Of a DNA stretch of 35,801 nucleotides, positions 9,597 to 27,969 are shown one piece after another. The position numbers and the translations under genes are program-made. A model generated the notes under the pieces. The model was not told the DNA's origin and ran no database searches. It worked only from the letters and a program-made list of their open reading frames with translations. The first letter of the stretch is position 1; the number at the start of each line of letters is the position of its first letter. The DNA is from Elusimicrobiota bacterium. GTDB lineage: Bacteria; Elusimicrobiota; Endomicrobiia; CG1-02-37-114; XYA2-FULL-39-19. The DNA is taken from assembly GCA_018816525.1 (NCBI GenBank), contig JAHIVV010000006.1, forward strand, positions 1-35,801, read 5' to 3'.

Positions 9597-10043
9597 ATGG
9601 ACAGATATTTAACAGACCAGGAAAAATTACTGGCAAAAAGTCTATTGAAAAACATAGATTTTCTCAAAGACCTCCCGGATCCGGAGCTGGACCAGCTGGC
9701 TAATTCGCTTGAAAAGAAAAATTTTAAGCCTGAACAAACTGTTGTTTTTCAGGGCGAGATTTCCAGCAAACTTTATATTGTTTGCGATGGTCTGGTGGGG
9801 GTTTTTGTAAGAATCGGCGGAGAGAAAAAGAAGGTGGCGGAGTTAAGGGTGGGGGATTATTTCGGGGAAATGTCATTGCTTGAACCTGCGACCGCCAGCG
9901 CTACAATTCGCGCAGAAAAACCATCCGTAATATGCGCCATATCCTGTGATAATTTTAAAAAAATAGTTGAAAAAAATACGGTTGCACTTGAAACCTTAAA
10001 GAAAAAAATAACTGCAAGAAAAGAAGCTTCAAAACCTAAATGA
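9597..10043 (+). CDS. Cyclic-nucleotide-binding-fold regulator without DNA-binding domain
   Basis: The 148-residue protein is a stand-alone cNMP-binding (Crp-type) beta-roll, about residues 20-125, with VVFQGEISSKLYIVCDGLVGV and the phosphate-cassette region YFGEMSLLE. A helix-turn-helix is absent, so it is not a transcription factor by itself. The cassette Glu (E91) is present. At the place of the Arg that contacts the cyclic phosphate in CAP (R82) the sequence has Ala (A100 in TASATIRA), so cAMP or cGMP binding is doubtful. It is the first gene of the operon and overlaps the kinase gene by ATGA, which suggests it controls or scaffolds the kinase. No clear ribosome binding site precedes its ATG. 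Confidence 0.85.
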   Translation: MDRYLTDQEKLLAKSLLKNIDFLKDLPDPELDQLANSLEKKNFKPEQTVVFQGEISSKLYIVCDGLVGVFVRIGGEKKKVAELRVGDYFGEMSLLEPATASATIRAEKPSVICAISCDNFKKIVEKNTVALETLKKKITARKEASKPK

Positions 10044-12604: not shown

Positions 12605-12616
12605 CCGGAGCTATGG

Positions 12617-13432
12617 ATGAAATTGATTATTGCTGGCAAAACAGATAAAGGTGTGGTGCGGCAAAATAACGAGGATGCTTACGCCGTTGACGAAGAGATT
12701 AAATTATTGGTAGTTTGCGATGGTGCCGGCGGTCAGGCAACAGGAGAAGTAGCGAGCAAGATAGCAACAGACGTTATACCTACACAGATGCGCCGAGCTC
12801 TTATAAATAAAGAAAGAACGATATTCGGAGAAAAAAATCCGAATTTTTCTGATGAGACAAATTTTCTTGCTTCAAGCATAAGATTTGCAAATCAGGTGAT
12901 ATTTGAAGCGGCAAGGAAATACCCGCAAAATTCCGGGATGGCTACAACTGTAGTTTCAGTGCTGGTTAAAGATGACACTATTTCTTATTGTAATGTTGGT
13001 GACAGCCGGATCTATTTAATAAGGGAAGGGACATTTAAACAACTGACTAATGACCATTCGCTGGTTATGGAACAGTTAAGAAGATGTTTAATAACAAAGG
13101 ACCAGGCAGAAAAATCGGAATATAAAAATATTTTAGTAAGAGCGCTGGGGCCCAAACAGGATGTGGAAGTTGATATGCAGGAGATGCCGGCAAAAGAGGG
13201 GGATTTGCTCATGCTTTGTTCTGACGGTTTAACTCACATGACCAAGGATTCAGAAATATTTGAAAAAATAAAGAATGGCCAGGTTCCAGAAGAAATTTGT
13301 GAAAAATTAATTAATCTGGCAAACGATGCCGGCGGGAAAGACAACATAACCGTAATAGCAGCAAAATTAACTAAAGAAGAAGGAATATTGAAAAATTTCG
13401 TTTCTTTTATTAGGGGAAAATATGCCTCCTAA
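12617..13432 (+). CDS. PP2C-family Ser/Thr protein phosphatase
   Basis: The 271-residue protein is a bacterial PP2C (Stp/PrpC type) that should reverse phosphorylation by the kinase encoded just upstream. Metal-binding motifs are intact: RQNNEDAY (E19, D20), CDGAGG (D35), VGDSR (D129), CSDGLT (D203) and GKDNIT (D242). There is no transmembrane segment. The start ATG at 12617 has a GGAG ribosome binding site six bases upstream, 12 bases after the kinase stop. The last 11 bases overlap the FHA gene. The kinase-phosphatase-FHA order is a common regulatory cassette. Confidence 0.95.
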   Translation: MKLIIAGKTDKGVVRQNNEDAYAVDEEIKLLVVCDGAGGQATGEVASKIATDVIPTQMRRALINKERTIFGEKNPNFSDETNFLASSIRFANQVIFEAARKYPQNSGMATTVVSVLVKDDTISYCNVGDSRIYLIREGTFKQLTNDHSLVMEQLRRCLITKDQAEKSEYKNILVRALGPKQDVEVDMQEMPAKEGDLLMLCSDGLTHMTKDSEIFEKIKNGQVPEEICEKLINLANDAGGKDNITVIAAKLTKEEGILKNFVSFIRGKYAS

Positions 13433-14174
13433 ATTTTTACTAAAATTCAATGCAGCAGTAATCAAAGAAATCCCAATTCCTGAAAGCGTAAAATTATTAA
13501 CTATCGGCAGGAAACCTGATAACGACATCGTTATTGACAATCCTGCAATTTCAGGGCACCATTGCAAAGTAACAAAGTTCGGAAATGTTTATTTTGTTGA
13601 AGATTTAGGCAGTACAAACGGTACTTACATTAAAGGTAAAAAAATCATTAAAGCAGAAATCCATCACAACGACCAGATTGACCTGGCGAAGCACTCATTA
13701 CAGTTTTTTTACGAAGAAGAGCTCAAGGAACAAGGCCCGGCTGATAAAACAGTTGTTTTAAATTCGGAAGCGCAAAAAGAAATTCTTGAAAGGTATGCAC
13801 AATCGGCGCAGCCGGCATCCTCCCCGCTTCCAATCCCGGATATTCCTTCTACTGACAAAACCGCATATTTAAAAGTGGTTGATGGGGTTGTTGACAAGAC
13901 AGAAATTGATATCACAACAATAGTAACTTATATCGGTACTACTGACGCAGCCGCGATAAAATATAAACCAGGAAGCGGTATTTTTGCAGGCGGAGCACCG
14001 GAAATAGCCGGGCTTATTAATAAAAGGCCGGAAGGGTATATTCTTAAAGCTTTAAAGAGCGGGTTCCCAAAAGTAAACAGCCAGCCGGTAAAAGACCAGA
14101 TTTTGTTAAAAGAATGGGATGTAATTGAGGTTGGCAAGACAAAATTGATATTGCTCTCAAAAGACAGAACCTGA
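13422..14174 (+). CDS. FHA-domain protein with a second degenerate FHA-like domain
   Basis: FHA domains bind phosphothreonine peptides and so read out kinase activity. The first domain (about 25-95) has all key residues: IGR at 28-30, S44 and H47 in ISGHH, and STNGTY with N66. The C-terminal region (about 160-245) has the same strand pattern (TYIGTTDAAAIKY ... NSQPVKDQILLKEWDVIEVG) but lacks the consensus binding residues. The linker holds DKTVVL (T110) and DKTAYL (T147). Both have the form Thr-x-x-Leu expected of FHA ligands and may be targets of the neighbouring kinase. A strong ribosome binding site (AGGGGA) lies inside the end of the PP2C gene, which it overlaps by 11 bases. Last gene of the operon. 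Confidence 0.9.
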   Translation: MPPKFLLKFNAAVIKEIPIPESVKLLTIGRKPDNDIVIDNPAISGHHCKVTKFGNVYFVEDLGSTNGTYIKGKKIIKAEIHHNDQIDLAKHSLQFFYEEELKEQGPADKTVVLNSEAQKEILERYAQSAQPASSPLPIPDIPSTDKTAYLKVVDGVVDKTEIDITTIVTYIGTTDAAAIKYKPGSGIFAGGAPEIAGLINKRPEGYILKALKSGFPKVNSQPVKDQILLKEWDVIEVGKTKLILLSKDRT

Positions 14175-14991: not shown

Positions 14992-15018
14992 AGTGTAGGA
15001 AATAAAAGAGAGGTGTCT

Positions 15019-16755
15019 ATGAAAAAAATATACCTTTTGGTTTTATCAATTATGTTTTTTTCTTCGCAGGCATTTTGTGATCTTATCATTACGAAAATAT
15101 CAGGTAAAGTAGGAGTCATGTCCGGCGTTAATAAAAGCTGGGTTACTCCAAAACCTTACCAGAAACTTGACCAGGATGATGTTGTGAAAACATTTTCTAA
15201 CGGCAAAGTGGAGCTTCTTTTCGAAGACGGCACTACGGTCTGGCTGAAAGAAAACACGCAGCTGCAGATTGCCCGGTTGCAGAGCGATTCCAGGACTATA
15301 GTATTACAAGCAGGCAGGATCCGCACAAAGGTAATTCCCTTAAAATTCGGTATGAAATTTTCTGCAAAAACGCCGACAGCTGTAGCTTCAGTCCGCGGGA
15401 CCGAGTTTATTTTACTCATGGATGAATCTGTGAGCCAATTACTGGTCATTGCAGGCAAGGTTGATTTTGGGAGCCTTGTATCCCAGCTCACGTCTTTAGT
15501 TGAAGCAGGCAATTCTTCTTTATCTGATTCCCTGGGTAAGATGACTCCGCCACAGCAGATTGAAGGAAATGACCTGCAAGTCGTAAACGATAATAGCTGG
15601 ACCGATTTCAGCGCTCCTGCAGAACAACAAACTGAAGGAACTCCTGCACCTGAGGAACAAAAAACACAAAAAGAAGAAATGAAACAGGATCTGGCTGAAT
15701 TAAGGCAGGAAATCCGCGAGTTGGTTATGGATGTAAAAACGGATGTCGCAACAGCGAAAGAATATACAGACGAAATAAAAGAATCAGATATTTCAACCGG
15801 CAGGACCCTGCGGGATAATTTTGGGAATGTAGTCAGAGTGGAACAAATGATGCTCCGCCCGGACACCAAAACACTGCAATTTATTAATATCACCAAAAGA
15901 AGCGATTATTCATACAAGGGCTATTTCACCTATGACGGGCCTTCCACTGCGCGCATAGATTCAATTGACGCTAAGATAACTTTTAACTTAGCTATGCCTG
16001 AAGATATTACCGACTGGCCTTCTTTTGCTTCTAACAACGATTCCTTGAAGCCTGTAAGCATGACAGTGAAGTTTTCTAACGGCAAAGATTCAATATTGAT
16101 GGATAATACATATTTGGGTGAAAAAACCGATGCCCATGGTAATACGTCAGAAGAATGGGCTCATTCCACGTTGTTTAAAGGTAAAGACGGTGAATGGAAA
16201 TTAGATGATGAGGATTATGAGAAAACGGATTCGTTATATTTTGACCCGGGGGAAGGCATAGACAGCAGCGGAGATGATGTTTTCTGGTCCTGGGCCATTT
16301 CCCCGAAAATAAGGCTTTACCGTGACTTGAACAATGACGGTAAATTCAGCTCCGGCGATACTATTAAATATGTTTATATGGGCAGCGAAGCATACCTTAT
16401 AAATAACAGCGGCGGTATTTTAGCTGCCGCTAATTTTTCTGATTCCAGCGTAAATCCTTTTGTTCTCCTCAAAGAAATAGCTTTTCAGAATGTTATGTTT
16501 TGCAGGATAGGCGACAGCGGCAGCCTGCTGTTTGCAGGAATAAAGGGAGTAGATTCTGAAGATATTCCTATAACTGTGAAGGATACTGTCAGGAACAATT
16601 ACGGTAATTTGAATAATTTTTTTGAGCGGGGCAATCTGGACCTGGTTTACACGCCGGATATTTTCATACCGATAGCCCAGAAGATTGCTTCACAGTTTGA
16701 TAAAATTGATACAGGTTCGAAAAGCGACAAAAATAATAATAGCATGCGTTTATAA
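15019..16755 (+). CDS. Secreted FecR-domain protein
   Basis: The 578-residue protein begins with a signal peptide (MKKIYLLVLSIMFFSSQAFC) and then a FecR domain (about 20-150). That domain has ISGKVGVMSG, FSNGKVELLFEDGTTVWLKE and FSAKTPTAVASVRGTEF. A Pro/Glu-rich stretch and a charged coiled-coil-like helix follow (about 205-255, KQDLAELRQEIRELVMDV). A long unrecognised C-terminal domain (about 260-560) carries an EF-hand-like DLNNDGKFSSGD. In other bacteria FecR domains sense periplasmic signals or bind surface polymers. Here no partner sigma factor is nearby. I chose ATG 15019 because GAGAGG lies five bases before it; the in-frame GTG at 15013 sits inside that ribosome binding site. First gene of an operon with three outer-membrane-type proteins. 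Confidence 0.82.
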   Translation: MKKIYLLVLSIMFFSSQAFCDLIITKISGKVGVMSGVNKSWVTPKPYQKLDQDDVVKTFSNGKVELLFEDGTTVWLKENTQLQIARLQSDSRTIVLQAGRIRTKVIPLKFGMKFSAKTPTAVASVRGTEFILLMDESVSQLLVIAGKVDFGSLVSQLTSLVEAGNSSLSDSLGKMTPPQQIEGNDLQVVNDNSWTDFSAPAEQQTEGTPAPEEQKTQKEEMKQDLAELRQEIRELVMDVKTDVATAKEYTDEIKESDISTGRTLRDNFGNVVRVEQMMLRPDTKTLQFINITKRSDYSYKGYFTYDGPSTARIDSIDAKITFNLAMPEDITDWPSFASNNDSLKPVSMTVKFSNGKDSILMDNTYLGEKTDAHGNTSEEWAHSTLFKGKDGEWKLDDEDYEKTDSLYFDPGEGIDSSGDDVFWSWAISPKIRLYRDLNNDGKFSSGDTIKYVYMGSEAYLINNSGGILAAANFSDSSVNPFVLLKEIAFQNVMFCRIGDSGSLLFAGIKGVDSEDIPITVKDTVRNNYGNLNNFFERGNLDLVYTPDIFIPIAQKIASQFDKIDTGSKSDKNNNSMRL

Positions 16756-16780: not shown

Positions 16781-17530
16781 TTGGTAAGATTAATTGTTGC
16801 TTTCCTGGTTATACTGTCCGCGCAAACCTGCCTTTATTGCGGTGATGATTTTGCATCTTCTGATATAGGCAAGGAAGCGATAAATCTGGGTTTAAAGTTT
16901 TTGGATAATCCCGGAGATTTTCTGTTTAACCTTCATTCCGACAATGTCGATTTCACCCCTGTAATTAAAGATAAAAACGTAACATTAAGGACTAATTTTT
17001 ACCCAACCACTTTTCCAACAACCTGGCTGAATATGAATTTAAAGGTAAAAATACTTTCAGACGGCGGTTTTAGCCCGTGGGTGCCGCAGGTTGATTTATT
17101 GGGCGAATATGGGAAAATGGCGGTTCTTGACATGGTCGCCAGCAGTGCAACAAAACTTTCTAACTCGGATTATGCCATCGGGGTGGTTGTCACCAAAGAA
17201 GTTGCAGAAAACACCAGGCTTTATGCCGGTATAAATTATTCGAAAACAGAACTCATAACCAATTTTGATAAACCTATAGAATTCGGCGCATTCAAATTAA
17301 GCCAGCTTTCAGTAAATGTAGGAGATACATTTATTTTCACGGGTATTGAAAATCAAGTCCGGGAAGACCCGCCAAAACGTGTAGTTGCGCATTTAGGTTA
17401 TGGTTTAAAAACAAAAAAAGTAGTTTCCAGGGTTGCGTGGTATACAAAAAACCTTGAATTAGGTTTTAATATTTATCCCGAGGGCCTGTTTGTAGTTCAC
17501 CCTTTTCTGGCCTGGCATTGGTACTTTTGA
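16781..17530 (+). CDS. Exported protein, probable small outer-membrane beta-barrel
   Basis: The 249-residue protein starts with a TTG codon, supported by AAGAAAGGT about 10 bases upstream and by the hydrophobic N-terminus it gives (VRLIVAFLVILSAQTCLYC), a signal peptide. The rest alternates polar and hydrophobic residues in strand-like blocks (NMNLKVKILSDGG, YAIGVVVTKEVAEN, RVAWYTKNLELGFNIYP) and ends in the aromatic WHWYF, as outer-membrane barrels do. I recognise no family. It lies between the FecR gene and another barrel in the same operon. Confidence 0.65.
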   Translation: MVRLIVAFLVILSAQTCLYCGDDFASSDIGKEAINLGLKFLDNPGDFLFNLHSDNVDFTPVIKDKNVTLRTNFYPTTFPTTWLNMNLKVKILSDGGFSPWVPQVDLLGEYGKMAVLDMVASSATKLSNSDYAIGVVVTKEVAENTRLYAGINYSKTELITNFDKPIEFGAFKLSQLSVNVGDTFIFTGIENQVREDPPKRVVAHLGYGLKTKKVVSRVAWYTKNLELGFNIYPEGLFVVHPFLAWHWYF

Positions 17531-17545
17531 GGAATAATTTTTAAA

Positions 17546-18754
17546 ATGCAAAATACAAAGATAAAAATTCTTACAATCCTTTTGCCGCTTATGCTCTGTT
17601 GCTCACTGCTTAGAGCGGCGTCGGTTGCGCCCTATTACGATTTTCAGTTTACCCAAGGCGCGGCGATACCTTCAAGAGGCAGTTCAGAATTTTCCTTGAA
17701 TCTGGTAAATGATGTCGGCCTGCTTGCTAAAATTCATCCCAGGCATACTTTAGTCGGTTTTTACGAAATAAAATATGTAGGGCCGGGGTTGACGCAGGAA
17801 GAAGGTGAAAGTTTCTCTGACAGGTATATGGACTATTTGTTGGTAGTAAGGCATAACTGGGTTTATAATAACAAGTACACTTTTAAGGCGCAATTGGACA
17901 ATATGATTGAAAACCGCAGAACCGGCGCCAATGAAGCCTGGGGTTACGGCCTATATGATTATGTCAGATCCGGGGGTATGGTTGATGCAGAAATAAATTT
18001 TGAAACTTTTAAATTGGATTCAGCAATTCAATACAGCGTTTTGACTTTTCCTAACTATACCGATCTCGTTTCTGAATTGCAGTCCGGTTCAGCTGATGCA
18101 GAATCCCAGTCCGGGAAACAGGACCATAACCTTATACAGATCCGGTCCAATTTGGATTATGAGGAAAACAGGTTTAGTTTCGGCCTTACCCTTCAAAACT
18201 ATATAAAACAGAAAGTCATAACAAATGTTACTCAGCCTGACGGTACCTATTATTCTTCCGACCTGCAGAGGGACATTATCTTGAACCTGGGGGCGGAAAG
18301 AACCCAAAAGTTTTCTGAAAGCATAATAATGAATATGTTTATTAGTTACAAAAACAGAGGGTCAAACCAGAACTATCAGCATTTTTTAACAGCCGGGTCA
18401 ACCGTTCCAGTATCCTATCAGGCTGATTTTAACAGTTACTCTGAAATATCGGCTGGTTTTCCGGTTACTTTTGCTTTGGCAAAAAAATGGGATTTTGTTT
18501 TCAGTCCGGAATACAAATATAAATTTTATTCCTCCCGTTCTCCGAGAGATGAAAATAATTTATTTGTCGGCGGCAGGCAGAGCACTACATTGTTCTTGTT
18601 GTCTTTTGCATTTAATAAAAAGTCAAGCGATGTTTCCACCACCTCTCTTTTCTACACTTTCCAGCAGCAATCTTCAAATATGAAGTTTGAAAAGTACATG
18701 CCTTATAACTATTCAGGCCACTTTATTGGGATAAGATACTCCTTAAGATATTAA
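17546..18754 (+). CDS. Exported protein, probable outer-membrane beta-barrel
   Basis: The 402-residue protein has a signal peptide (KIKILTILLPLMLCCSLLRA) and then many amphipathic strands, such as FSLNLVNDVGLLAKI, RFSFGLTLQNYI and SIIMNMFISYKNRG. The C-terminus is FIGIRYSLRY, with a final aromatic residue. This pattern suggests a barrel of perhaps 14-16 strands, but I do not recognise a family or substrate. A GAGGAATAA ribosome binding site overlaps the end of the preceding gene, and spacing of 15 bases puts it in the same operon. Confidence 0.65.
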   Translation: MQNTKIKILTILLPLMLCCSLLRAASVAPYYDFQFTQGAAIPSRGSSEFSLNLVNDVGLLAKIHPRHTLVGFYEIKYVGPGLTQEEGESFSDRYMDYLLVVRHNWVYNNKYTFKAQLDNMIENRRTGANEAWGYGLYDYVRSGGMVDAEINFETFKLDSAIQYSVLTFPNYTDLVSELQSGSADAESQSGKQDHNLIQIRSNLDYEENRFSFGLTLQNYIKQKVITNVTQPDGTYYSSDLQRDIILNLGAERTQKFSESIIMNMFISYKNRGSNQNYQHFLTAGSTVPVSYQADFNSYSEISAGFPVTFALAKKWDFVFSPEYKYKFYSSRSPRDENNLFVGGRQSTTLFLLSFAFNKKSSDVSTTSLFYTFQQQSSNMKFEKYMPYNYSGHFIGIRYSLRY

Positions 18755-18784
18755 AATCTGCTGTAAATCATGGGGGATAATTCT

Positions 18785-20428
18785 ATGTTCTCAAAAAAAA
18801 TTGTTTTAAAAACAACAATGGTTTTTTCGTTGTTGGTTTTTTCAACGGGAACTTTATTTTGTACTCCGTTTATCGTTGCAGGCCCCAGGGCTTTGGGCCT
18901 GGGCGGGGCTTATACAGCTATCGCCCAAACATCTTTGGGCGCCTACTGGAACCCGGGAGCCTTGGATTTACAGGAGGGGTTTGATTTGAAATTTAATTTT
19001 GGCGCCGGCGCGGAAATTACGGGGAATTTGTTGGAAAATGCAAATAATATTGTAAAATTCAGCGATCAGTTTTCACAATTACAGAGTTCCCAGAAAAACG
19101 GCAGCGGGCTGGATATTAAACAAATAGGCGCCATTTCTTCCGCAATAAAAAACCTTAAGGGCGTAGGCGCTGCGGGCAATGGAACGATTATAAATATTGC
19201 AGGAGGTTTAGGTGTAAGAGTAGGTAAATATGTGCTGACTGTGAATAATTACTCGTTAATCGGCATCAGGCCTTATACGGAAATTTATGGTTTTTACCTT
19301 GGTTCAGGCACGTTCAATGTGCCGACAGGTTCCAGATTAAGGTCAGGTATCTTGTCTCACGGAGACAGCAGCCAGAATTTTGAAGGTATCAACATCAGCA
19401 CTGAATTCATTAATTCCCCGGATGCGCAATATACTGATGAAACAGCACAGATAAAGACACAGCTTGACTGGTTGTTGCTCGATTTGAAAAAAGCTGGTGT
19501 TGAAGTTCCAGCAACTTTGCCAGACGGTACTCCTTTTACAACAGATATGATTGCGAATGTTCTTGTAAACACAGCAGTCAATAACGGCTCCACCGAACAG
19601 GACTTGAAAGATTCAATAGCCATTATAGAAGAAAGCAAGCCTATCCTTGAACTTGTTTTAGGTTCGGCAGATCCCCGGAATTCTTTTTCCAATAATAAGT
19701 CAAACCTTACTATACGCGGTTTAAGTGTTACTGAAATTGGTTTAAGCGCAGCTTGGCCGCTATACTTTAAGGATTTATACTTGGGCGGTACATTAAAGAT
19801 GATGATGGGCCAGACAGGATTTTATAGAAAACTTCTTTTTGAAAATACCGGCGGTGATAACAAAGTTGGCCTTGATGATTCTGTGTCGGATATGTCAAAA
19901 AATACAAAAAATTCATCCCAGTTTGGTTTTGACCTTGGTTTTTTCTATGATAAAAAGCAGGATTGGCGTTCATCTTTTGGTTTGACTCTAAAAAATATCA
20001 ACAGCCCGAAATTCGCAATGCCTGAAGCTGCGCTTTCATACGGAGAGGACACAATTACCCTTGACCCTCAGATAAGAGCCGGTGCGGCTTTTTATCCTTT
20101 AAACTGGATTTTGCTTTCAAGCGATATTGATATTACAAATAATACAACGCTGATTCCGGATTATAACAGCAGGTATTGGTCCCTGGGAGTGGAAATTAAT
20201 TTAGTAAATGAATCTTATTTCAATCTGCCCCTGCGTTTTGGTATGATGAAAAATCTTGCCTCAACCAAGGATACTTCAGCATATACTGCAGGAATAGGTT
20301 TAAATCTGGGCCGCTTTGTTATAGATTTGTCAGGGGCTATGAGTACTACAATGACAAAGATTGATACGGATTCTTCAGGAATCCCTTCAAACGTTTCCGG
20401 CCAGTTGGGCCTGGGGCTTGAATTTTGA
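18785..20428 (+). CDS. PorV/TraF-like outer-membrane barrel protein
   Basis: The 547-residue protein has a signal peptide (about 1-27) and then GPRALGLGGAYTAIAQTSLG with AYWNPGAL. This N-terminal motif is shared by PorV-type, FadL-type and TraF_2 (PF13729-like) barrel proteins. The C-terminus GQLGLGLEF ends in an aromatic. A non-barrel insertion of about 100 residues (roughly 200-290, rich in D, T and S) lies between strands. In Bacteroidota, PorV is the shuttle that binds the SprA translocon, and a SprA-like gene is close by here, but the link is inference. I chose ATG 18785 because GGGGGAT lies about seven bases before it; the ATG at 18770 includes that site. It ends one base from the lptG stop (convergent). 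Confidence 0.7.
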   Translation: MFSKKIVLKTTMVFSLLVFSTGTLFCTPFIVAGPRALGLGGAYTAIAQTSLGAYWNPGALDLQEGFDLKFNFGAGAEITGNLLENANNIVKFSDQFSQLQSSQKNGSGLDIKQIGAISSAIKNLKGVGAAGNGTIINIAGGLGVRVGKYVLTVNNYSLIGIRPYTEIYGFYLGSGTFNVPTGSRLRSGILSHGDSSQNFEGINISTEFINSPDAQYTDETAQIKTQLDWLLLDLKKAGVEVPATLPDGTPFTTDMIANVLVNTAVNNGSTEQDLKDSIAIIEESKPILELVLGSADPRNSFSNNKSNLTIRGLSVTEIGLSAAWPLYFKDLYLGGTLKMMMGQTGFYRKLLFENTGGDNKVGLDDSVSDMSKNTKNSSQFGFDLGFFYDKKQDWRSSFGLTLKNINSPKFAMPEAALSYGEDTITLDPQIRAGAAFYPLNWILLSSDIDITNNTTLIPDYNSRYWSLGVEINLVNESYFNLPLRFGMMKNLASTKDTSAYTAGIGLNLGRFVIDLSGAMSTTMTKIDTDSSGIPSNVSGQLGLGLEF

Positions 20429-20429
20429 T

Positions 20430-21530
20430 TTATTTCGAAATTTTGGTGAAGAGTGTTATTCCGGTCAGCAGGAATACAATATTGCACAACCACGCGCCAA
20501 GAACAGGCGGCAGGATTCTGGCCTCGCCTAAAACCCTTCCTAAAGACATCAGCGTCCAGTAAAAGAAGGATATAACAAGTACATACCCAACCCCTCTTAC
20601 TTTTGCATATTTCCCGCCTAATCCCAGGGCCAAAGGCAATCCTAAAAACATAACAACCAGGCTTGAAAACGGGTATGAAAATCTTAATTGGTAGGCTACT
20701 GTCTGTTTAATAGCCGGTTGTGACGCATTTTTCAGCCTCATTATTTCATCTTTAAGCTCATAAGTGGTCAATAAATCAATATCAGTTTTTGCCGGGATAA
20801 AATCTTCCGGTTTTTCAGGTATAGTAAGTACTTTTTCTGCCAGTTTCTTTTCGGAGAGCAGTTCCCTGCCGCCGTCAGTAAATTTGCGTTCCGTAACATA
20901 TTTTAAAACCCATTTTCCGTTGTTGTAAATCATCTGCCTGGCGAAAGTTTGTTCAATCAATGAATATTTAGAATTGAATTTATCTATTATGACATTATAA
21001 ATTATGCCGGTTTTTGGGTCAAAAGCATCAATGGAAAAGTTCCTGCCGTCTAAACTATGGTAAACAATTCCTTTATGTTGAAGCGCGGGGCCTTCGGCCT
21101 GTTTATTGTAAAGCCCGATTTCGCGCATCTGGATTGTTTTAGCAAATCCCCTGGGTACAAGTTCGTTATTGAGGACTATTCCAAAGAGAACCAGCACTAA
21201 CCCTGCCAAAAATACGGGCGCAAAAAGAGAAGGCAGGTTTATTCCACAGGACTTGATTGCGGTAATTTCGTTATCATGGGACAAGCGGTTTAAAGAAAAA
21301 ACAATGCCTACCAGCACGGCAACAGGCATAGAATCCTTCAGCCACATGGGCAGAAGAGCCCCCATATATTTTAGAATAAAGGCAAACGAAGCCTTGAAAC
21401 TTATAAAGTCAGGCAGGCGGAAGAAAAATTCAGAGAGAAGAAAGATTAAACAAAAAAATGCCAGCCCGAACAGGAAAGATTCCAGGAATTCTTTTAGTAT
21501 GTATTTTTTTAAGATATTTTTTTTGTTCAT
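20430..21530 (-). CDS. lptG: LPS export permease LptG-like
   Basis: The 366-residue protein is a YjgP/YjgQ-family permease that, with LptF and the ATPase LptB, extracts LPS from the inner membrane. It has the usual plan: three N-terminal helices, with FLFGLAFFCLIFLLSEFF, a conserved MPVAVLVGIVFSLNRLSHDNE, a periplasmic jelly-roll (about 130-270) and three C-terminal helices, with PFSSLVVMFLGLPLALGLGG. The start at 21530 overlaps the upstream lptF stop by ATGA; the open frame runs 21 codons further upstream but lies inside lptF. Which of the pair is LptF and which LptG is assigned by order only. Confidence 0.88.
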   Translation of the reverse strand: MNKKNILKKYILKEFLESFLFGLAFFCLIFLLSEFFFRLPDFISFKASFAFILKYMGALLPMWLKDSMPVAVLVGIVFSLNRLSHDNEITAIKSCGINLPSLFAPVFLAGLVLVLFGIVLNNELVPRGFAKTIQMREIGLYNKQAEGPALQHKGIVYHSLDGRNFSIDAFDPKTGIIYNVIIDKFNSKYSLIEQTFARQMIYNNGKWVLKYVTERKFTDGGRELLSEKKLAEKVLTIPEKPEDFIPAKTDIDLLTTYELKDEIMRLKNASQPAIKQTVAYQLRFSYPFSSLVVMFLGLPLALGLGGKYAKVRGVGYVLVISFFYWTLMSLGRVLGEARILPPVLGAWLCNIVFLLTGITLFTKISK

Positions 21531-22624
21531 CTTTTTAATAATTTTATCATCAAAAATAATCCTACTGTAAAAGCGCAAATATTCGGCAGCCAAAGCACAA
21601 GAGCGATAGGCAGTTTCGGGATTCTTTCAGTTGCGGAAATGGAACCGATTAAAATAAAGTAGTATGCGCAGATTATTCCCAGGCTAAGGGCGAACCCTAC
21701 GGTTCTTCCGCCCCGATTTGTTATTATGCCCGTAGGCAAGCCGATAAGCACCAGGCATAATGCGGCAAAACCTATTACCCACCTTAAATTATATTCGGTT
21801 TCAAATCGCGCTGTTTCTGTTTTATGCTCCCTGGCAAATTTAATTTCTTTCAACAGGTCTTCCGAGGAAATTTCTCTTAAGGTCGAAGCTGCCTGTGCAT
21901 TATTTTTTTGTTCTTCGAACAAAGAAATAGTTATGAGGTAATTATCAAAAGCAAATTGAGTGAGTTTTTCTGAATCGTCAGAAGAGGTGGCCTGCAATAT
22001 TCCGTCTTTTAAATTGAAAGTTATAGCGTTTTCTGCGATGTTCGCAGTACCTGATTTTGCAATTATCTGCGTATTTCCAGCAGGGGGTGATATTTTATAA
22101 ATATTCACGCCGCGGAGCTCATTAGCGTTGTTATCTATTTCATTGATATAAATACGGTAGTTTCCCAGTTTGGTAAGGGCCTTTTCCTCAAATTTCATTA
22201 GGGGTTGTTTTTTCGCAATCGTAAAATATATACGTGAAAATTCAGAATGTATTTTCGGAAGCACTTCAAGATTCAGCCAGGAAAGCATAAGGCTTAAAAC
22301 AAGAGCCAGCAGTAACGGCTGGAAAGTAAACCTGAAAGTATTGATGCCCGCGGAACTAAGGGCTGTTATTTCACGGTCTTCTGACATTCTTCCATAGGTA
22401 AGCAGTACAGAAAAAAGCAGAGACATCGGCACCGTGACGGTGAAAAGCGACATGACAAGGTATGTTATTAACTGTGTAACAACCAATACTCCTGCGCCCT
22501 TGTTTATCAATAAATCCATAAGTTGGAACAGATTGTTCAGCACTAACACGAAAGTAAAGACAATCATTCCAATAACGAAGGATTTTATTGATTCTTTATA
22601 AATATATTTCGTCAAAATATTCAT
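21527..22624 (-). CDS. lptF: LPS export permease LptF-like
   Basis: The 365-residue protein is the first gene of the LptF/LptG pair. N-terminal helices include SFVIGMIVFTFVLVLNNLF and the conserved VPMSLLFSVLLTYGRMSEDRE. A periplasmic beta domain covers about 125-250, and the three C-terminal helices include GFAALCLVLIGLPTGI. Together with LptG it forms the transmembrane part of the LPS transporter; lptB, lptC and lptA are not in the window. The predicted start of transcription is two bases before the ATG, from a promoter divergent from sprA. Confidence 0.88.
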   Translation of the reverse strand: MNILTKYIYKESIKSFVIGMIVFTFVLVLNNLFQLMDLLINKGAGVLVVTQLITYLVMSLFTVTVPMSLLFSVLLTYGRMSEDREITALSSAGINTFRFTFQPLLLALVLSLMLSWLNLEVLPKIHSEFSRIYFTIAKKQPLMKFEEKALTKLGNYRIYINEIDNNANELRGVNIYKISPPAGNTQIIAKSGTANIAENAITFNLKDGILQATSSDDSEKLTQFAFDNYLITISLFEEQKNNAQAASTLREISSEDLLKEIKFAREHKTETARFETEYNLRWVIGFAALCLVLIGLPTGIITNRGGRTVGFALSLGIICAYYFILIGSISATERIPKLPIALVLWLPNICAFTVGLFLMIKLLKR

Positions 22625-22632
22625 ACTCAGAA

Positions 22633-22665
22633 ATTATAGCAAAAAAGCGAAAAATTCGCTATAAT
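22633..22665. promoter_or_regulatory. Mirror-symmetric divergent promoters of lptFG and sprA
   Basis: ATTATAGC (22633-22640) and GCTATAAT (22658-22665) form an inverted repeat whose arms contain the -10 boxes of the minus (22638-22633) and plus (22660-22665) promoters, 21 bases apart. Inside is a second inverted repeat, GCGAA-AAA-TTCGC. Each -35 region (TAGCAA and TAGCGA, poor matches) overlaps the opposite -10, so the two promoters cannot be bound by polymerase at the same time. Start sites fall at 22626 (minus) and 22672 (plus). Confidence 0.6.
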
Positions 22666-22671
22666 ATTCCC

Positions 22672-25600
22672 GTGAAAAAGGGATTTTTTAAGCTCCTAGT
22701 GCTGTCAATTCTACCAATTATTGCCGCAGTACCGGTATTTTCTGAGATAAGCTATATCCATCCACAGAGCCCATCGGTAGCTCAACCTCAGGTTGGCCAG
22801 GAAGAGCAGGTACAAATAGACACAACTTCTCCTTCGAATATCGATGACGAGTCTTTTTTCCAGTATACCCGCGATCAATGGCGCGAGATGCGCAAGGCTA
22901 TCGAAGAAGGCCGTAAACCGGGCGAAAAAGCTGAAAAATCGACAGTTGTTGTCATCGGGCCTGAACTGCCTCCGCCGTCTACAGGCGGTACCATTGAACT
23001 GCCCTATGAAACCAGGTTATCCATCCAGGGTTCGAAAGTCATCGGAATGAAATACTCTTTCAGGAAATACGACAACAATTCTTTGCCGGCAAACCAGGAT
23101 TCCGGCAGTTTTGAAATGGAACAATCTCTCGTAGTAAAAATCAGCGGACAGGTAGGCAAAAAAATAAAAGTTAACGTCAATTTTGATGATACCCAGCCTG
23201 ATGTGAGGGATATTTCGGTTGCTTATCACGGAGATCCTGATGAAGTTGTGCAGGAAGCGGTTTTCGGCGATATTATGCTTTCACTGCCGGGTACTGAATT
23301 CGTAGGATACGGCAGGCAGGCCTTCGGTATAAAATTGACCACAAAATATAAAAATTTAAGAACCTATTTTGTCGGCAGCCAGGCCAAAGGCACCCCGGTC
23401 AGCAAGAAATTTACAGGAAGCACCCAGATGGAAAAGCCCGTAATTCAGGATACTAGTTACGCCAAAAGAAAATATTACCAGTTAACTTTTTTTAGCACAG
23501 AAACCATTAACAATGACGGGAGCGAAGAAATTTACATAGATGATAAAAATCCAAATAATGACCTGGTTAATGGTTCTAAAGACCTGGCGTTTTCAAGTTA
23601 CACCACCCGCGATGTAATTATGGGGAGCGTTGGAAAATTTGACCGCCTCCTTTCTGCAAAGGGGGATTATACCATCGATTATTCAAAAGGAATTATTATT
23701 TTCCGAAATTCGCTCCAGGACAATGCGGTTGTAATCGTAAATTACAAAAGAACGGACGGCAGCCATCTGGTAAATACCCTGCCGGGCTCAACGAATTACA
23801 TTCTTATTAAAGACGATCAAAATACCTCTGGTATTACCAGAGAAATTAAATCTTACTATAACCTGAATAGGACGCAGATTGTACGGGATAACGACAGAGG
23901 AAATTTTTTCTTAAAAATTGTTAAGGATTCAGGGGAAGAACCTACACTTGCGGAATGGAAACGCGACACAGGACTGGATGCAATACCCAAGTACTCGGAG
24001 AATATAAAAATAGATTTTGAAAGCGGTGTTTTCAATATCGTTGACAGTTCAGGAAATCCCTGGAATGTTTTTCCGTCTCCCGCATACCAGGGTGTAGGTA
24101 CTCATGCTCTCTATAAGTTTTATATTGAATACAGGTTCAGAACCAAACAATTTGATTTAAATCCGCCCGGTTCCATGATTCCTCAATCCGAACAGATTGT
24201 AATGGATGGCAAAACATTGCAAAGGGATAAAGACTATATAATGGATTATGACCTAGGCAGGTTTACCTTCCTGAACGAAAACATGTTTAATGACAACAGC
24301 GTTATAGATGTCAATTACGAGTATGCGCTGTTTGGCGGACTGCAGGTCGGCGAGACGTTCGTAGGTATCCGCAACGAGCTTTCCCTTACGCGGAATATGT
24401 TTGTGGGTGTAAGTTATTTGAAAAATTTTCCTCCCCGGCCTCAATCCATACCTGACCTGAAATCAGTAGCGAGTGACCTGGAAATAAAAGAAATTGATTC
24501 TAGAATTCAGAACTTAAGATGGGGCCCGCTCTCTTTGGGTTTTGGCGGCGAGTATGCGCAAAGTTTGCGTAATATGAATACTTACGGAAAAGCTATGATA
24601 GATTCCATGGAGGGAATAAAACAGGCCGAAAGCCCTGCCTTAGCCAAAGATTCCTGGAAATACGGTTGGACAGTGCAGGATTACCCGCCTGATGCGGTAA
24701 CTTTAACCAATGAAGACCAATTATTGCGCGATATTTACGGGATCGATCAGGTCAAAGACGAGAAACAAAGCGTTTTGAAAGTAGCTTATGATTTAACCAG
24801 AGCTTCAGAATGCGCTGTGGCCCAATTGTTATCAGCCACCGGAATAGATTTTTCGAAAAAAACTTCTATGGAAATGAAATTGGCTGGCAGACAGACAGCC
24901 GGCGCGCAGTTTACTGATGATGACTTTATTACTATAGAATTCGGGAAATTCAATGAAGATGTTGATCATGACAAGTCATTCGATACTGAAGATATAAGCA
25001 CTAACAATGTATTGAACGATGGGGAGGATATAGGATGGCTTTTCAATGCGCCTGACTGGCCGTTAAAAAAAGACCAATTGAGAGTTGGGGCAAATAACGG
25101 CCTTATTGATTCAGAGGATTTAGACGGTGATCGCATTTTCAACACTAATGAGGCGGTAGACCAGGATAAAAAATTCGTAATAAAAATGAATGATTTCAAC
25201 AATTCCTGGGCCAGCATACAAAGGGATATTCAAAAAATTGATTCAAATACCTGGCTCTATATAAAAGAAATTAGAATAACCATCCACGCACCGGGAAAGG
25301 TTGGAGAAATCAGGATTGCAAAAATGGATGCAGTAGGCAATAAGTGGGAAAATTTGACCCCCACAGGGCTTGTTCTTAAAGCTGTTAATAATTACGATGA
25401 TAAACGCTATCGCGACCATGCCCTCAACCAGGAAGGCGGGCCTATGCTGTCCGAATATGAAAGCTTGTACGGTAAACAAACTATCAGGACTTTCAAGCAG
25501 GAACAGGCTCTTGAAATGAACTACGAATTTTCCTACAGTACCGCAATTCCCGTGATATCGACAGGCGCTTTTGTCGCAAAGTTGAGTTTAGGAGCAGGAG

Positions 25601-27969
25601 AAGATTTTTCAGTTCACCAGAAATTGAAATTTTTCGTCTATGGCGATAATAAGGGCGAAATATTAGTTTTAAGAGCCAACACGGATAATGATGGAAACTA
25701 TTTTGAGTATAAAAGACTCGTAGATTGGTCCGGTTGGAAAGAGATAACAATCAACCAGGTTGATGTTAACGGCGACAAAATTCCTGAAATCTGGCAGGCA
25801 GAACAGGGAGTAACCGCTGAATGTTCCGGTAAAGGGTTTGGAGTAGGATCTCCGAATCTTGCAAAGGTTAGTTATTTGCAGTTTTTAATTGTAAGTTCAG
25901 GTACTATTGGCAGTACTTCCTATCCGCCCATTCCAGCCCAACAGCCCAGCTATATCTGGATTGATGAAATTCACATGACAGATTCTATATCCAGGCAGGG
26001 TGATGCGTACAAAATTTATGCGAACATGGGAATAGACGGGTGGGCAACTTTTGGAGGAACATACAAATATAAAGACCCCAATTTTGAAACTTTTGACGCC
26101 CGGGCTGTAGGTACCCAGCAATCTTTTGAACAATCGGGAAACCTCAATTTTACCCGGCTGGGTTTTATGCCTATGAATTTTTCCGGAGGCAGGACAGAAA
26201 CACGCACTACCAGCATAGACAAATCGGCAGATTATGTATCTATACTTCAAAAAGGAAGAGTAATCACAACCAATTTCACTGCAGGTACCAGGCTTAATAT
26301 TAACCGGCTGCCAAGTTTGTCCTATAATTATTCAGTCAATACAACCAGTTCATCTAACGAAGCATCTAAGTACTTTTTAACTAACACAAGGGAATCGCAG
26401 GATGCAAGTTTAAATTATTCAATCGGTAAATTAACAAAGTTTGATCCCATCGACTCTTTTATACCTCAAAGCCTAGCTTTAGGCGGAGGCCGCACAATTA
26501 ACAGGGACGAACCCTGGCTAGTTATGCGTGATACCGGGCAAAATCCGGTTAAGCTGGAATACACGGAAAGATATAATGTATCGGCACCTTTCCAGATGTT
26601 CTGGAACAGGTTTTCGCTCAACCCGTCCTATTCGCATACAAATTCCTATGAAGAAAGAAGGATCCCGAATTTTCCAAAATATGACAAAACAGCCGGTCAG
26701 ACAATAGGTTTGGGGACTTCTTTAACAGTTACAGACTGGTTTGTTCCCCGGGCCAATTATTCTTTGTCTACAAATGAAAATTTTGATTTTACCGGTATTA
26801 CCGACCCTGATAAAATATCAAAAACAAAATCCGTACAAAGAAACGGGTCTGCCAGTGTTTCTGCGGATTTTGGGATAGGGAGAATTTTTCCTAAATTTAA
26901 CCCGACAAAATCTTTAAGTTTAAACTCCAGTTATTCAATCCAGGATGGAGATCAATACAGCCGGGTGGGCAGTACCTATCCTGCATTAAACGATATCTGG
27001 ATAAGAGAGCCTCTTAAGAACGGGACTTTGACTTCATTGACAAGAAGCGACACAATAAGTTCCTCCGGCAGGTGGAATCTTTTTGAAGGCCTTCCTTTGC
27101 CGGGTAAATTATCGCCCTTGAGCAAGACTTCAACTTCTGTGGGCTATTCAGAACAAAAATCGTTTTCGTTTAGCGGGTCTAAATCACGGAACCGGGTCCT
27201 TACCTGGCCCGACCTTACAGTATCTCTTTACGATATGGAAAAAATGTTCGGCGGCGACAAATATATTTCCGACACAAGCCTGACCCTGACTAATAGGTAT
27301 AAACAGAACAATTCTTATAATGTTATCGATGATACCGACGTACCGCAGATAGAAAACAGGAATATTGATAATGCTGTCAGCATGCATTTTAATTCAAAAC
27401 GGTATATAAAATCACTTTCATTGACTTTTGGCGACTCAAGAGCCCGGGATTACAGTTACATTGATAAAAAATTTACCAGGGTTTCAATATCCTTCAATTA
27501 TTCAGTTCAGCCCAGCTTTGACGCTTTAGGCATGACCCTTACGCCCAGTTATTCTTATTCTGAAAATAAGGCCTGGGCGGGCGACCCCGATGATCTTGAT
27601 CCTTCAGAAAGCGCAAGAATCAAAAAAAATCCTACTAGTGATTTACGTACGGAAACAGCGAGCATAAGTTTTTATAAAGACGCATCATTTCCCGGCGGTA
27701 TGTTTATACCCATCATAGGAAAAACACTGCCCTTAACAAACAGGTTTATTTTCAATGCCAGCCTTTCTTATTCAAAAACGGACTCGGATATAAATATCGG
27801 TAATTCAAAAACTACCACGTATGGGTTAACCCTCAGCGGTAATTACACTATTTCGGACAATCTGTCATCCGAACTTGGCGCCGGGTATAATCGTTTTATG
27901 AACAGGGAAGTAAGCGATAAAAACTGGACCTCATACAGTATAAACGCCAGGCTGACGATCTCCTTCTAA
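22672..27969 (+). CDS. sprA: SprA-like giant outer-membrane translocon protein
   Basis: A 1765-residue protein beginning at GTG 22672, which gives a clean signal peptide (VKKGFFKLLVLSILPIIAA); the frame is open 28 codons further upstream, but that reads through the promoter. SprA/Sov is the huge beta-barrel that exports proteins in type IX secretion. SprA-type marks are GKKIKVNVNFD at about 162-172, DPDEVVQEAVFGD at 188-200 and GRQAFGIKL at 214-222. VGSPNL starts at 1058 and YIWIDEIHM at 1094. After that come about 650 residues of alternating strands ending in an aromatic (LTISF). An acidic Asp-rich stretch at about 760-840 (EDLDGDRIFNTNE) looks calcium-binding. It is shorter than typical Bacteroidota SprA (over 2300). 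Partners GldKLMN are absent here. Confidence 0.82.
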   Translation: MKKGFFKLLVLSILPIIAAVPVFSEISYIHPQSPSVAQPQVGQEEQVQIDTTSPSNIDDESFFQYTRDQWREMRKAIEEGRKPGEKAEKSTVVVIGPELPPPSTGGTIELPYETRLSIQGSKVIGMKYSFRKYDNNSLPANQDSGSFEMEQSLVVKISGQVGKKIKVNVNFDDTQPDVRDISVAYHGDPDEVVQEAVFGDIMLSLPGTEFVGYGRQAFGIKLTTKYKNLRTYFVGSQAKGTPVSKKFTGSTQMEKPVIQDTSYAKRKYYQLTFFSTETINNDGSEEIYIDDKNPNNDLVNGSKDLAFSSYTTRDVIMGSVGKFDRLLSAKGDYTIDYSKGIIIFRNSLQDNAVVIVNYKRTDGSHLVNTLPGSTNYILIKDDQNTSGITREIKSYYNLNRTQIVRDNDRGNFFLKIVKDSGEEPTLAEWKRDTGLDAIPKYSENIKIDFESGVFNIVDSSGNPWNVFPSPAYQGVGTHALYKFYIEYRFRTKQFDLNPPGSMIPQSEQIVMDGKTLQRDKDYIMDYDLGRFTFLNENMFNDNSVIDVNYEYALFGGLQVGETFVGIRNELSLTRNMFVGVSYLKNFPPRPQSIPDLKSVASDLEIKEIDSRIQNLRWGPLSLGFGGEYAQSLRNMNTYGKAMIDSMEGIKQAESPALAKDSWKYGWTVQDYPPDAVTLTNEDQLLRDIYGIDQVKDEKQSVLKVAYDLTRASECAVAQLLSATGIDFSKKTSMEMKLAGRQTAGAQFTDDDFITIEFGKFNEDVDHDKSFDTEDISTNNVLNDGEDIGWLFNAPDWPLKKDQLRVGANNGLIDSEDLDGDRIFNTNEAVDQDKKFVIKMNDFNNSWASIQRDIQKIDSNTWLYIKEIRITIHAPGKVGEIRIAKMDAVGNKWENLTPTGLVLKAVNNYDDKRYRDHALNQEGGPMLSEYESLYGKQTIRTFKQEQALEMNYEFSYSTAIPVISTGAFVAKLSLGAGEDFSVHQKLKFFVYGDNKGEILVLRANTDNDGNYFEYKRLVDWSGWKEITINQVDVNGDKIPEIWQAEQGVTAECSGKGFGVGSPNLAKVSYLQFLIVSSGTIGSTSYPPIPAQQPSYIWIDEIHMTDSISRQGDAYKIYANMGIDGWATFGGTYKYKDPNFETFDARAVGTQQSFEQSGNLNFTRLGFMPMNFSGGRTETRTTSIDKSADYVSILQKGRVITTNFTAGTRLNINRLPSLSYNYSVNTTSSSNEASKYFLTNTRESQDASLNYSIGKLTKFDPIDSFIPQSLALGGGRTINRDEPWLVMRDTGQNPVKLEYTERYNVSAPFQMFWNRFSLNPSYSHTNSYEERRIPNFPKYDKTAGQTIGLGTSLTVTDWFVPRANYSLSTNENFDFTGITDPDKISKTKSVQRNGSASVSADFGIGRIFPKFNPTKSLSLNSSYSIQDGDQYSRVGSTYPALNDIWIREPLKNGTLTSLTRSDTISSSGRWNLFEGLPLPGKLSPLSKTSTSVGYSEQKSFSFSGSKSRNRVLTWPDLTVSLYDMEKMFGGDKYISDTSLTLTNRYKQNNSYNVIDDTDVPQIENRNIDNAVSMHFNSKRYIKSLSLTFGDSRARDYSYIDKKFTRVSISFNYSVQPSFDALGMTLTPSYSYSENKAWAGDPDDLDPSESARIKKNPTSDLRTETASISFYKDASFPGGMFIPIIGKTLPLTNRFIFNASLSYSKTDSDINIGNSKTTTYGLTLSGNYTISDNLSSELGAGYNRFMNREVSDKNWTSYSINARLTISF

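What the first reader, a model, noticed from the sequence alone, without database searches (positions are those of the whole stretch)
22672..27969. SprA-type type IX translocon protein with a reduced size and a novel neighbourhood
The sequence shows a 1765-residue signal-peptide protein with SprA-like N-terminal repeats, VGSPNL/YIWIDEIHM motifs, a long beta-strand region and an aromatic end. Established knowledge: SprA is the outer-membrane channel of type IX secretion in Bacteroidota. Here it is shorter, begins at GTG, and neighbours lptFG, a PorV-like barrel and comF rather than gld genes. Inference: a divergent, minimal or unrelated-use SprA secretion route in this lineage.
Basis: partly seen in the sequence, partly recalled or inferred. 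Interest (0 to 1): 0.78.

Follow-up and report, generated by a model that had tools for sequence, protein, structure and literature searches.

The report
Protein-secretion channel in an unexpected phylum

Summary
In detail: 22672-27969 (+) is a 1765-residue SprA homologue. It matches TIGR04189 at E=1.4e-30, though below its cut-off. A family profile finds F. johnsoniae SprA in the PDB (E=6e-26), and a confident model of residues 571-1765 matches the four SprA structures best (E 1e-30 to 1e-37). The host is Elusimicrobiota. The protein is conserved through the phylum at about 1800 residues, with the same lptF/lptG | sprA-comF order, so neither size nor neighbourhood is a local oddity. Of the 150 best sorting-domain hits, 34 end within 600 bp upstream of a PorV gene (0.2 expected). 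Of 40 other PorVs, 27 follow a cargo gene. Paired carriers and sorting domains diverge together within genomes (r=0.87). I infer a SprA/PorV/CTD secretion route with many dedicated carriers. GldK/L/M/N and PorU were not detected, but these tests lacked positive controls. Some relatives place a FliF-FliG fusion with MotA and two MotB genes beside PorV, a speculative motor. In the papers I could search, type IX secretion is described only in the FCB superphylum.

The parts
22672..27969 (+). sprA homologue, 1765 aa, GTG start, signal peptide, C-terminal beta-strand ending in F; outer-membrane translocon
   Evidence: TIGR04189 E=1.4e-30; profile A1 vs PDB SprA E=6e-26; AlphaFold model of residues 571-1765 (pLDDT 83.8) best matches 8gl8, 8gl6, 6h3i, 6h3j
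21527..22624 (-). LptF/LptG permease, divergent from sprA
   Evidence: PF03739 245 bits; conserved beside sprA through the phylum
20430..21593 (-). second LptF/LptG permease
   Evidence: PF03739 260 bits
27972..28679 (+). ComF-family protein directly downstream of sprA
   Evidence: TIGR00201 E=8e-33; next to sprA in 45 loci
18770..20428 (+). PorV/TraF-like outer-membrane barrel; in relatives the homologue lies beside a CTD-bearing M6 protease at the sprA locus
   Evidence: TraF_2 73 bits; PorV_fam 41 bits, below cut-off; cluster 19
17546..18754 (+). 402-aa protein without Pfam family, probably an outer-membrane barrel (inferred), related to the gene before a PorV at G000:C70
   Evidence: BLASTP E=3e-10 to L128:9777-10991
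16781..17530 (+). 249-aa secreted protein conserved in the same module
   Evidence: cluster 30
15013..16755 (+). FecR-domain protein; a FecR gene also lies in the cargo-FecR-x-PorV module at G000:C70
   Evidence: PF04773
22646..22665 (+). likely sprA promoter: inverted repeat AGCGAAAAATTCGCT (22646-22660) running into TATAAT (22660-22665); the start codon lies 6 nt after TATAAT, with no Shine-Dalgarno site
   Evidence: sequence; inference

Best explanation
This is the translocon (SprA) of a type IX-like secretion route found through the phylum Elusimicrobiota. Likely working: cargo proteins with a signal peptide cross the inner membrane by Sec. Their folded C-terminal Ig-like domain (CTD) enters the SprA barrel and binds a PorV-family carrier at the side opening. 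The CTD-PorV complex then leaves sideways into the outer membrane with the cargo outside. Unlike F. johnsoniae, where one PorV serves all type A cargo, many cargos are encoded directly upstream of their own PorV. So the carrier is probably specific and may stay as the surface anchor. Shown by computation: SprA homology and fold, CTD homology and fold, PorV family, pairing, co-divergence. Inferred: transport itself, lateral exit, anchoring, and use of a power source other than GldLM.
For: SprA. Present in 46 of 60 relatives and 203 genome-collection stretches. PorV family: 14 matches in this genome, 2-41 in sprA+ genomes and 0-2 in sprA- genomes (p=2e-4). CTD: TIGR04183 in 34 of 40 genomes, 13 in this one. 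The CTD profile's best PDB hits are PorZ (7e-9) and PorU (2e-8), ahead of FlgD, and it also hits CTDs solved in the SprA translocon, 8glk_D and 8glj_D. The CTD model (pLDDT 90.6) best matches the PorU CTD (TM 0.78). Pairing: 34 CTD hits within 600 bp upstream of a PorV against 0.23 expected and 0 in the three other orientations; of 40 further PorVs, 23 of 33 same-strand upstream ORFs end in a CTD and 4 more have one two genes away. Co-divergence within genomes r=0.87, p=2e-4. Cargos are a subtilase, beta-helix/Ig, carboxypeptidase-regulatory-like and fn3 proteins, several with a signal-peptide-like start. An M6 metalloprotease with HExxH and a CTD sits at the sprA locus in relatives.
Against: No transport was shown. 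GldK/L/M/N and PorU were not detected, and T9SS as known needs the motor. The CTD also resembles the FlgD Ig domain. The sprA-/PorV-/CTD- genomes are probably also reduced symbionts, so that co-loss is confounded by genome reduction. Co-divergence could come from duplication of whole pairs without specificity. The PorV-like gene in this window is below the PorV_fam cut-off.
Confidence: 0.85

Rival explanations
1. Complete, ordinary T9SS whose motor, ring and sortase are present but too divergent for the Bacteroidota models.
For: None of the GldL, GldM, GldN and PorU models scored above its cut-off in any control genome, so absence is untested; even SprA scores below its curated cut-off.
Against: Carrier expansion and cargo-carrier pairing differ from the single PorV for type A cargo described in F. 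johnsoniae (PMC12618676); PorU's C25 domain, a catalytic domain, is missed in all 40 genomes.
Confidence: 0.3
2. The SprA homologue serves lipopolysaccharide or outer-membrane assembly with the neighbouring LptF/LptG, in place of LptD.
For: sprA lies beside lptF/lptG through the phylum; the LptD Pfam model hits 5 of 60 genomes, all weakly; a paper reports LptD absent from Endomicrobiaceae (PMC11257099).
Against: Fold search ranks SprA first by about 25 orders of magnitude over LptD; PorV and CTD cargo are present and paired; at least three of the genomes with an LptD-like hit (G019, G031, G033) also carry near-full-length SprA.
Confidence: 0.05
3. The PorV family and FlgD-like C-terminal domains form a secretion or anchoring system that does not use SprA; SprA has a separate role.
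For: The pairing evidence concerns PorV and CTD; SprA is linked to them only by genome co-occurrence and by the sprA-locus protease/PorV-like genes.
Against: The CTD profile hits CTDs solved inside SprA complexes; the PorV-like and CTD-protease genes lie at the sprA locus in about a dozen relatives.
Confidence: 0.08

Closest known systems
Type IX secretion system of Bacteroidota (SprA/Sov, PorV, type A CTD; TIGR04189, NF033709, TIGR04183)
   Same: Homologous translocon with SprA fold, PorV-family carriers, Ig-like C-terminal signal on Sec-exported surface proteins.
   Different: Outside the FCB superphylum; SprA about 640 residues shorter; 14-41 PorV matches in many genomes, frequently encoded directly after a cargo; no detected GldKLMN or PorU; CTD with a WDGKN / FlgD-like core.
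Type B cargo with PorP/SprF shuttles in F. johnsoniae (PMC12618676)
   Same: Cargo genes linked to their own shuttle gene, cognate pairs.
   Different: Here the carriers are PorV family and the CTDs are mostly type A-like; in F. johnsoniae all type A CTDs use one PorV.
FlgD Ig-like domain (PF13860)
   Same: Same Ig-like fold and WDGKN core as the cargo C-terminus.
   Different: Here it is the extreme C-terminus of surface proteins and is closer to the PorZ/PorU CTDs.
Flagellar rotor/stator (FliF, FliG, MotA, MotB)
   Same: FliG_M/FliG_C with a FliF C-terminal fragment, MotA, and two MotB proteins with OmpA ends in one block.
   Different: FliF-FliG in one short protein, two MotB genes, block often beside PorV/CTD genes.

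Membership tests
SprA/Sov translocon | Sequence homology to SprA/Sov | tested here: met
   TIGR04189 E=1.4e-30, below the curated 200-bit cut-off; all 19 homologues hit; PDB SprA E=6e-26 with four collinear blocks
SprA/Sov translocon | SprA barrel fold | tested here: met
   Residues 571-1765 only; top four PDB matches are the SprA structures; the full 36-strand count was not testable (length limit)
SprA/Sov translocon | Side opening occupied by PorV or Plug | not testable with these tools
Type IX secretion system | PorV-family carrier | tested here: met
   14 matches in this genome, 8 over the NF033709 cut-off
Type IX secretion system | Cargo with C-terminal sorting domain | tested here: met
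   13 TIGR04183 hits in this genome; homology and fold to PorU/PorZ CTDs
Type IX secretion system | GldL/GldM motor | tested here: inconclusive
   No GldM; one sub-threshold GldL hit in 40 genomes; no control genome scored above cut-off
Type IX secretion system | GldK/GldN ring | tested here: inconclusive
   GldN none; GldK model matches only below cut-off, as it also does in control genomes such as B. subtilis
Type IX secretion system | PorU sortase (C25) | tested here: inconclusive
   0 of 40 genomes, no positive control
Type IX secretion system | SprE/PorW, PorD, SkpA, PPI, PorT, PorG | not tested
Type IX secretion system | SprA-dependent export of cargo | not testable with these tools
   Needs experiment
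LptD | LptD sequence or fold | tested here: not met
   LptDE structures appear only at E about 3e-4, far behind SprA

The most novel reading that the evidence does not exclude
Elusimicrobiota run a type IX-like system without GldLM: each cargo leaves with its own single-use PorV that stays as anchor, and in part of the class the power comes from a stripped-down flagellar-type motor (FliF-FliG fusion, MotA, two MotB) encoded beside PorV genes.
Probability: 0.15. Interest if true: 0.92.

Novelty: new variant of a known kind. Interest (0 to 1): 0.72.

Why it matters
A 2024 paper states that T9SS genes are absent outside the FCB phyla (PMC11285876), and a detailed Endomicrobia genome paper does not mention secretion or SprA (PMC11257099). 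SprA, PorV and CTD cargo across Elusimicrobiota would push the origin of the SprA route back before FCB or reveal an old transfer. It gives a natural test of which parts are the core (SprA-PorV-CTD) and which are additions (motor, ring, sortase). The paired carriers supply many natural CTD-PorV pairs for working out recognition rules. It also predicts the surface proteome of a mostly uncultured phylum.

Tried and rejected
SprA_N (PF14349) search of the genome and protein: no hit, but 1 of 19 homologues hits, so not a refutation. phmmer with the single protein against the PDB gave only noise; the profile was needed. The 'novel neighbourhood' as evidence of new function: rejected, conserved across the phylum and T9SS genes are scattered in P. 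gingivalis. The FliF-FliG/MotAB block as the general SprA motor: rejected as general, because family f4 (Endomicrobiaceae-like) genomes with sprA mostly have a single MotA/ExbB protein of TolQ size. GldK hits in relatives: treated as background, since the model also hits B. subtilis and Methanosarcina. The Autotransporter hit on the C-terminus (PF03797, 26.4 bits): generic barrel similarity. The literature search for FliG with Elusimicrobi is not informative, since 'flig' also matches 'flight'.

Full report
The ORF is real and at the stated place: GTG at 22672, stop at 27967-27969, 1765 residues, signal-peptide-like start and C-terminal F. The start codon lies 6 nt after a TATAAT and has no Shine-Dalgarno site, so the message may be leaderless (inference). 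Neighbours are as described: two LptF/LptG permeases on the other strand, ComF downstream, and a barrel gene upstream.

IT IS SprA. TIGR04189 matches at E=1.4e-30 but at 105 bits against a curated cut-off of 200. SprA_N of Pfam does not hit this protein but hits one of 19 homologues at 3e-12. TIGR04189 hits all 19. A profile of the family finds F. johnsoniae SprA among all PDB sequences at E=6e-26 and nothing else, with four collinear blocks: profile 129-240, 489-569, 792-984 and 1024-1122 onto SprA 151-264, 697-778, 1158-1400 and 1473-1576. Comparing the spacings shows that the missing ~640 residues are spread between blocks. An AlphaFold model of residues 571-1765 (pLDDT 83.8, pTM 0.50) matches the four SprA structures at E 1e-30 to 1e-37; the next match is at 1.7e-6. 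The full chain exceeds the length limit, so the 36-strand count was not tested.

HOST AND SPREAD. Relatives found by protein search are nearly all Elusimicrobiota MAGs (the same-genus hit is RIFOXYB2_FULL_48_7). SprA is in 46 of 60 related genomes. Median length is 1798 aa. lptF/lptG lie beside it in 51 loci and comF directly follows in 45. So both the size and the neighbourhood are phylum traits. In P. gingivalis T9SS genes are scattered as well, and none of the adjacent genes encodes cargo (PMC5445135).

CARRIERS. The PorV/PorQ family model finds 14 matches in this genome, 8 over its curated cut-off, and 2-41 in other sprA-bearing genomes. The five genomes without sprA among 40 have 0-2 (p=2e-4; within one family p=5e-4). 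These genomes are probably reduced symbionts, so co-loss alone is weak evidence. Some carriers are fused to TPR, LamG or OmpA domains.

CARGO SIGNAL. The type A sorting domain TIGR04183 is found in 34 of 40 genomes, 13 times here and 91 times in the same-genus genome. The Elusimicrobiota domains share PNP, IYNxxGELV, WDGKN and a basic C-terminal strand. As a profile their best PDB hits are the C-termini of PorZ (7e-9) and PorU (2e-8), then FlgD (3e-6) and the cargo CTDs 8glk_D and 8glj_D solved with the SprA translocon. The predicted fold (pLDDT 90.6) is closest to the PorU CTD (TM 0.78, rmsd 1.9 A). FlgD-like Ig domains are close, so the domain alone would not prove type IX use. Cargo bodies in this genome include a subtilase, a beta-helix/Ig protein and carboxypeptidase-regulatory-like and fn3 proteins.

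PAIRING. Among the 150 best CTD hits, 34 lie within 600 bp upstream of a listed PorV gene on the same strand, in 15 genomes; 0.23 are expected and the three other orientations give none. I then took 40 PorV genes outside that set and used a CTD model built only from nine proteins of this genome: 23 of 33 same-strand upstream ORFs end in a CTD, and four more have one two genes upstream. Distances among paired PorVs and among their CTDs correlate (r=0.75 overall; r=0.87 for pairs within one genome, p=2e-4). This fits cognate specificity, though duplication of whole pairs would also give it. In F. johnsoniae all type A CTDs use one PorV, and only type B cargo has linked shuttles (PMC12618676).

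THE sprA LOCUS. In about a dozen relatives an M6 metalloprotease with intact HExxH and a CTD, next to PorV-like genes, sits just upstream of lptF/lptG. The window keeps the PorV-like gene and its companions (FecR, 249-aa and 402-aa genes) but not the protease. A similar module (CTD cargo, FecR, 406-aa protein, PorV) lies at G000:C70.

WHAT WAS NOT FOUND. GldM, GldN and PorU: no hits in 40 genomes; GldL: one sub-threshold hit; GldK: only matches below its cut-off, as in control genomes. None of the GldL, GldM, GldN and PorU models scored above its cut-off in any control genome, so I treat these as inconclusive.

A POSSIBLE MOTOR. In G000 and several relatives one block encodes a short FliF-FliG fusion, MotA and two MotB proteins with OmpA ends. 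A PorV gene lies near 6 of 11 such blocks (0.72 expected, P=2e-5). The expectation used approximate densities and the blocks were found partly by noticing PorV neighbours, so this P value is optimistic. Family f4 genomes with sprA mostly have a single TolQ-sized MotA/ExbB protein, so this block cannot be the general motor.

MECHANISM. In F. johnsoniae the cargo CTD binds PorV loops inside SprA and the complex leaves through the side opening, with energy needed for release (PMC10994853). I infer the same core here, with many dedicated carriers. Without a detected PorU, the carrier plausibly remains the anchor. The power source is unknown.

NOVELTY. A 2024 paper says T9SS genes are absent outside FCB phyla (PMC11285876). 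The searched open library holds no paper reporting T9SS in Elusimicrobiota among the five plus three papers that mention both terms; those I opened mention them apart, and a detailed Endomicrobia genome paper does not mention secretion. Subscription papers and preprints were not searchable, so priority is not certain.

Noticed in passing
L198:2814-6529 (G000:C23); also L192, L193, L194, L195, L201, L210, L211, L212, L213, L215: Block of FliF-FliG fusion, MotA and usually two MotB-like proteins with OmpA ends; PorV (often TPR-fused) lies near 6 of 11. Whether these genomes are flagellated was not tested.
   Followed up: partly
L033:3683-5542, L034:4493-6169, L050:5728-7368, L080:2716-4449 and others: Active-site-intact M6 metalloprotease with type IX sorting domain at the sprA locus of relatives; absent from this spot in the window.
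   Followed up: partly
L196:2476-9937 (G016:C110): ExbB-like, two ExbD-like, PorV, 282 aa, CTD cargo, PorV, PorV in one row: another motor-like set beside carriers.
   Followed up: no
L202:258-2429; L204:139-2322; L129:14887-16458; L130:6170-8270: PorV-family barrels fused (or, in L130, adjacent) to Ig plus OmpA, TPR or LamG domains, suggesting fixed anchoring.
   Followed up: partly
genomes G000-G059: LptD (PF04453) detected in only 5 of 60 genomes, weakly, although the model hits E. coli and Caulobacter; lptF/lptG are conserved next to sprA.
   Followed up: partly
window 22646-22672: Inverted repeat AGCGAAAAATTCGCT running into TATAAT 6 nt before the GTG start: possible leaderless, regulated sprA transcript.
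   Followed up: no
window 9597-14174: Cyclic-nucleotide-binding protein, 854-aa protein with C-terminal Ser/Thr kinase, PP2C phosphatase and FHA protein in a row.
   Followed up: no
L102: A contig labelled Caldiserica (QMOP01000082) carries a SprA homologue at 31% identity; misassigned MAG or a further phylum.
   Followed up: no
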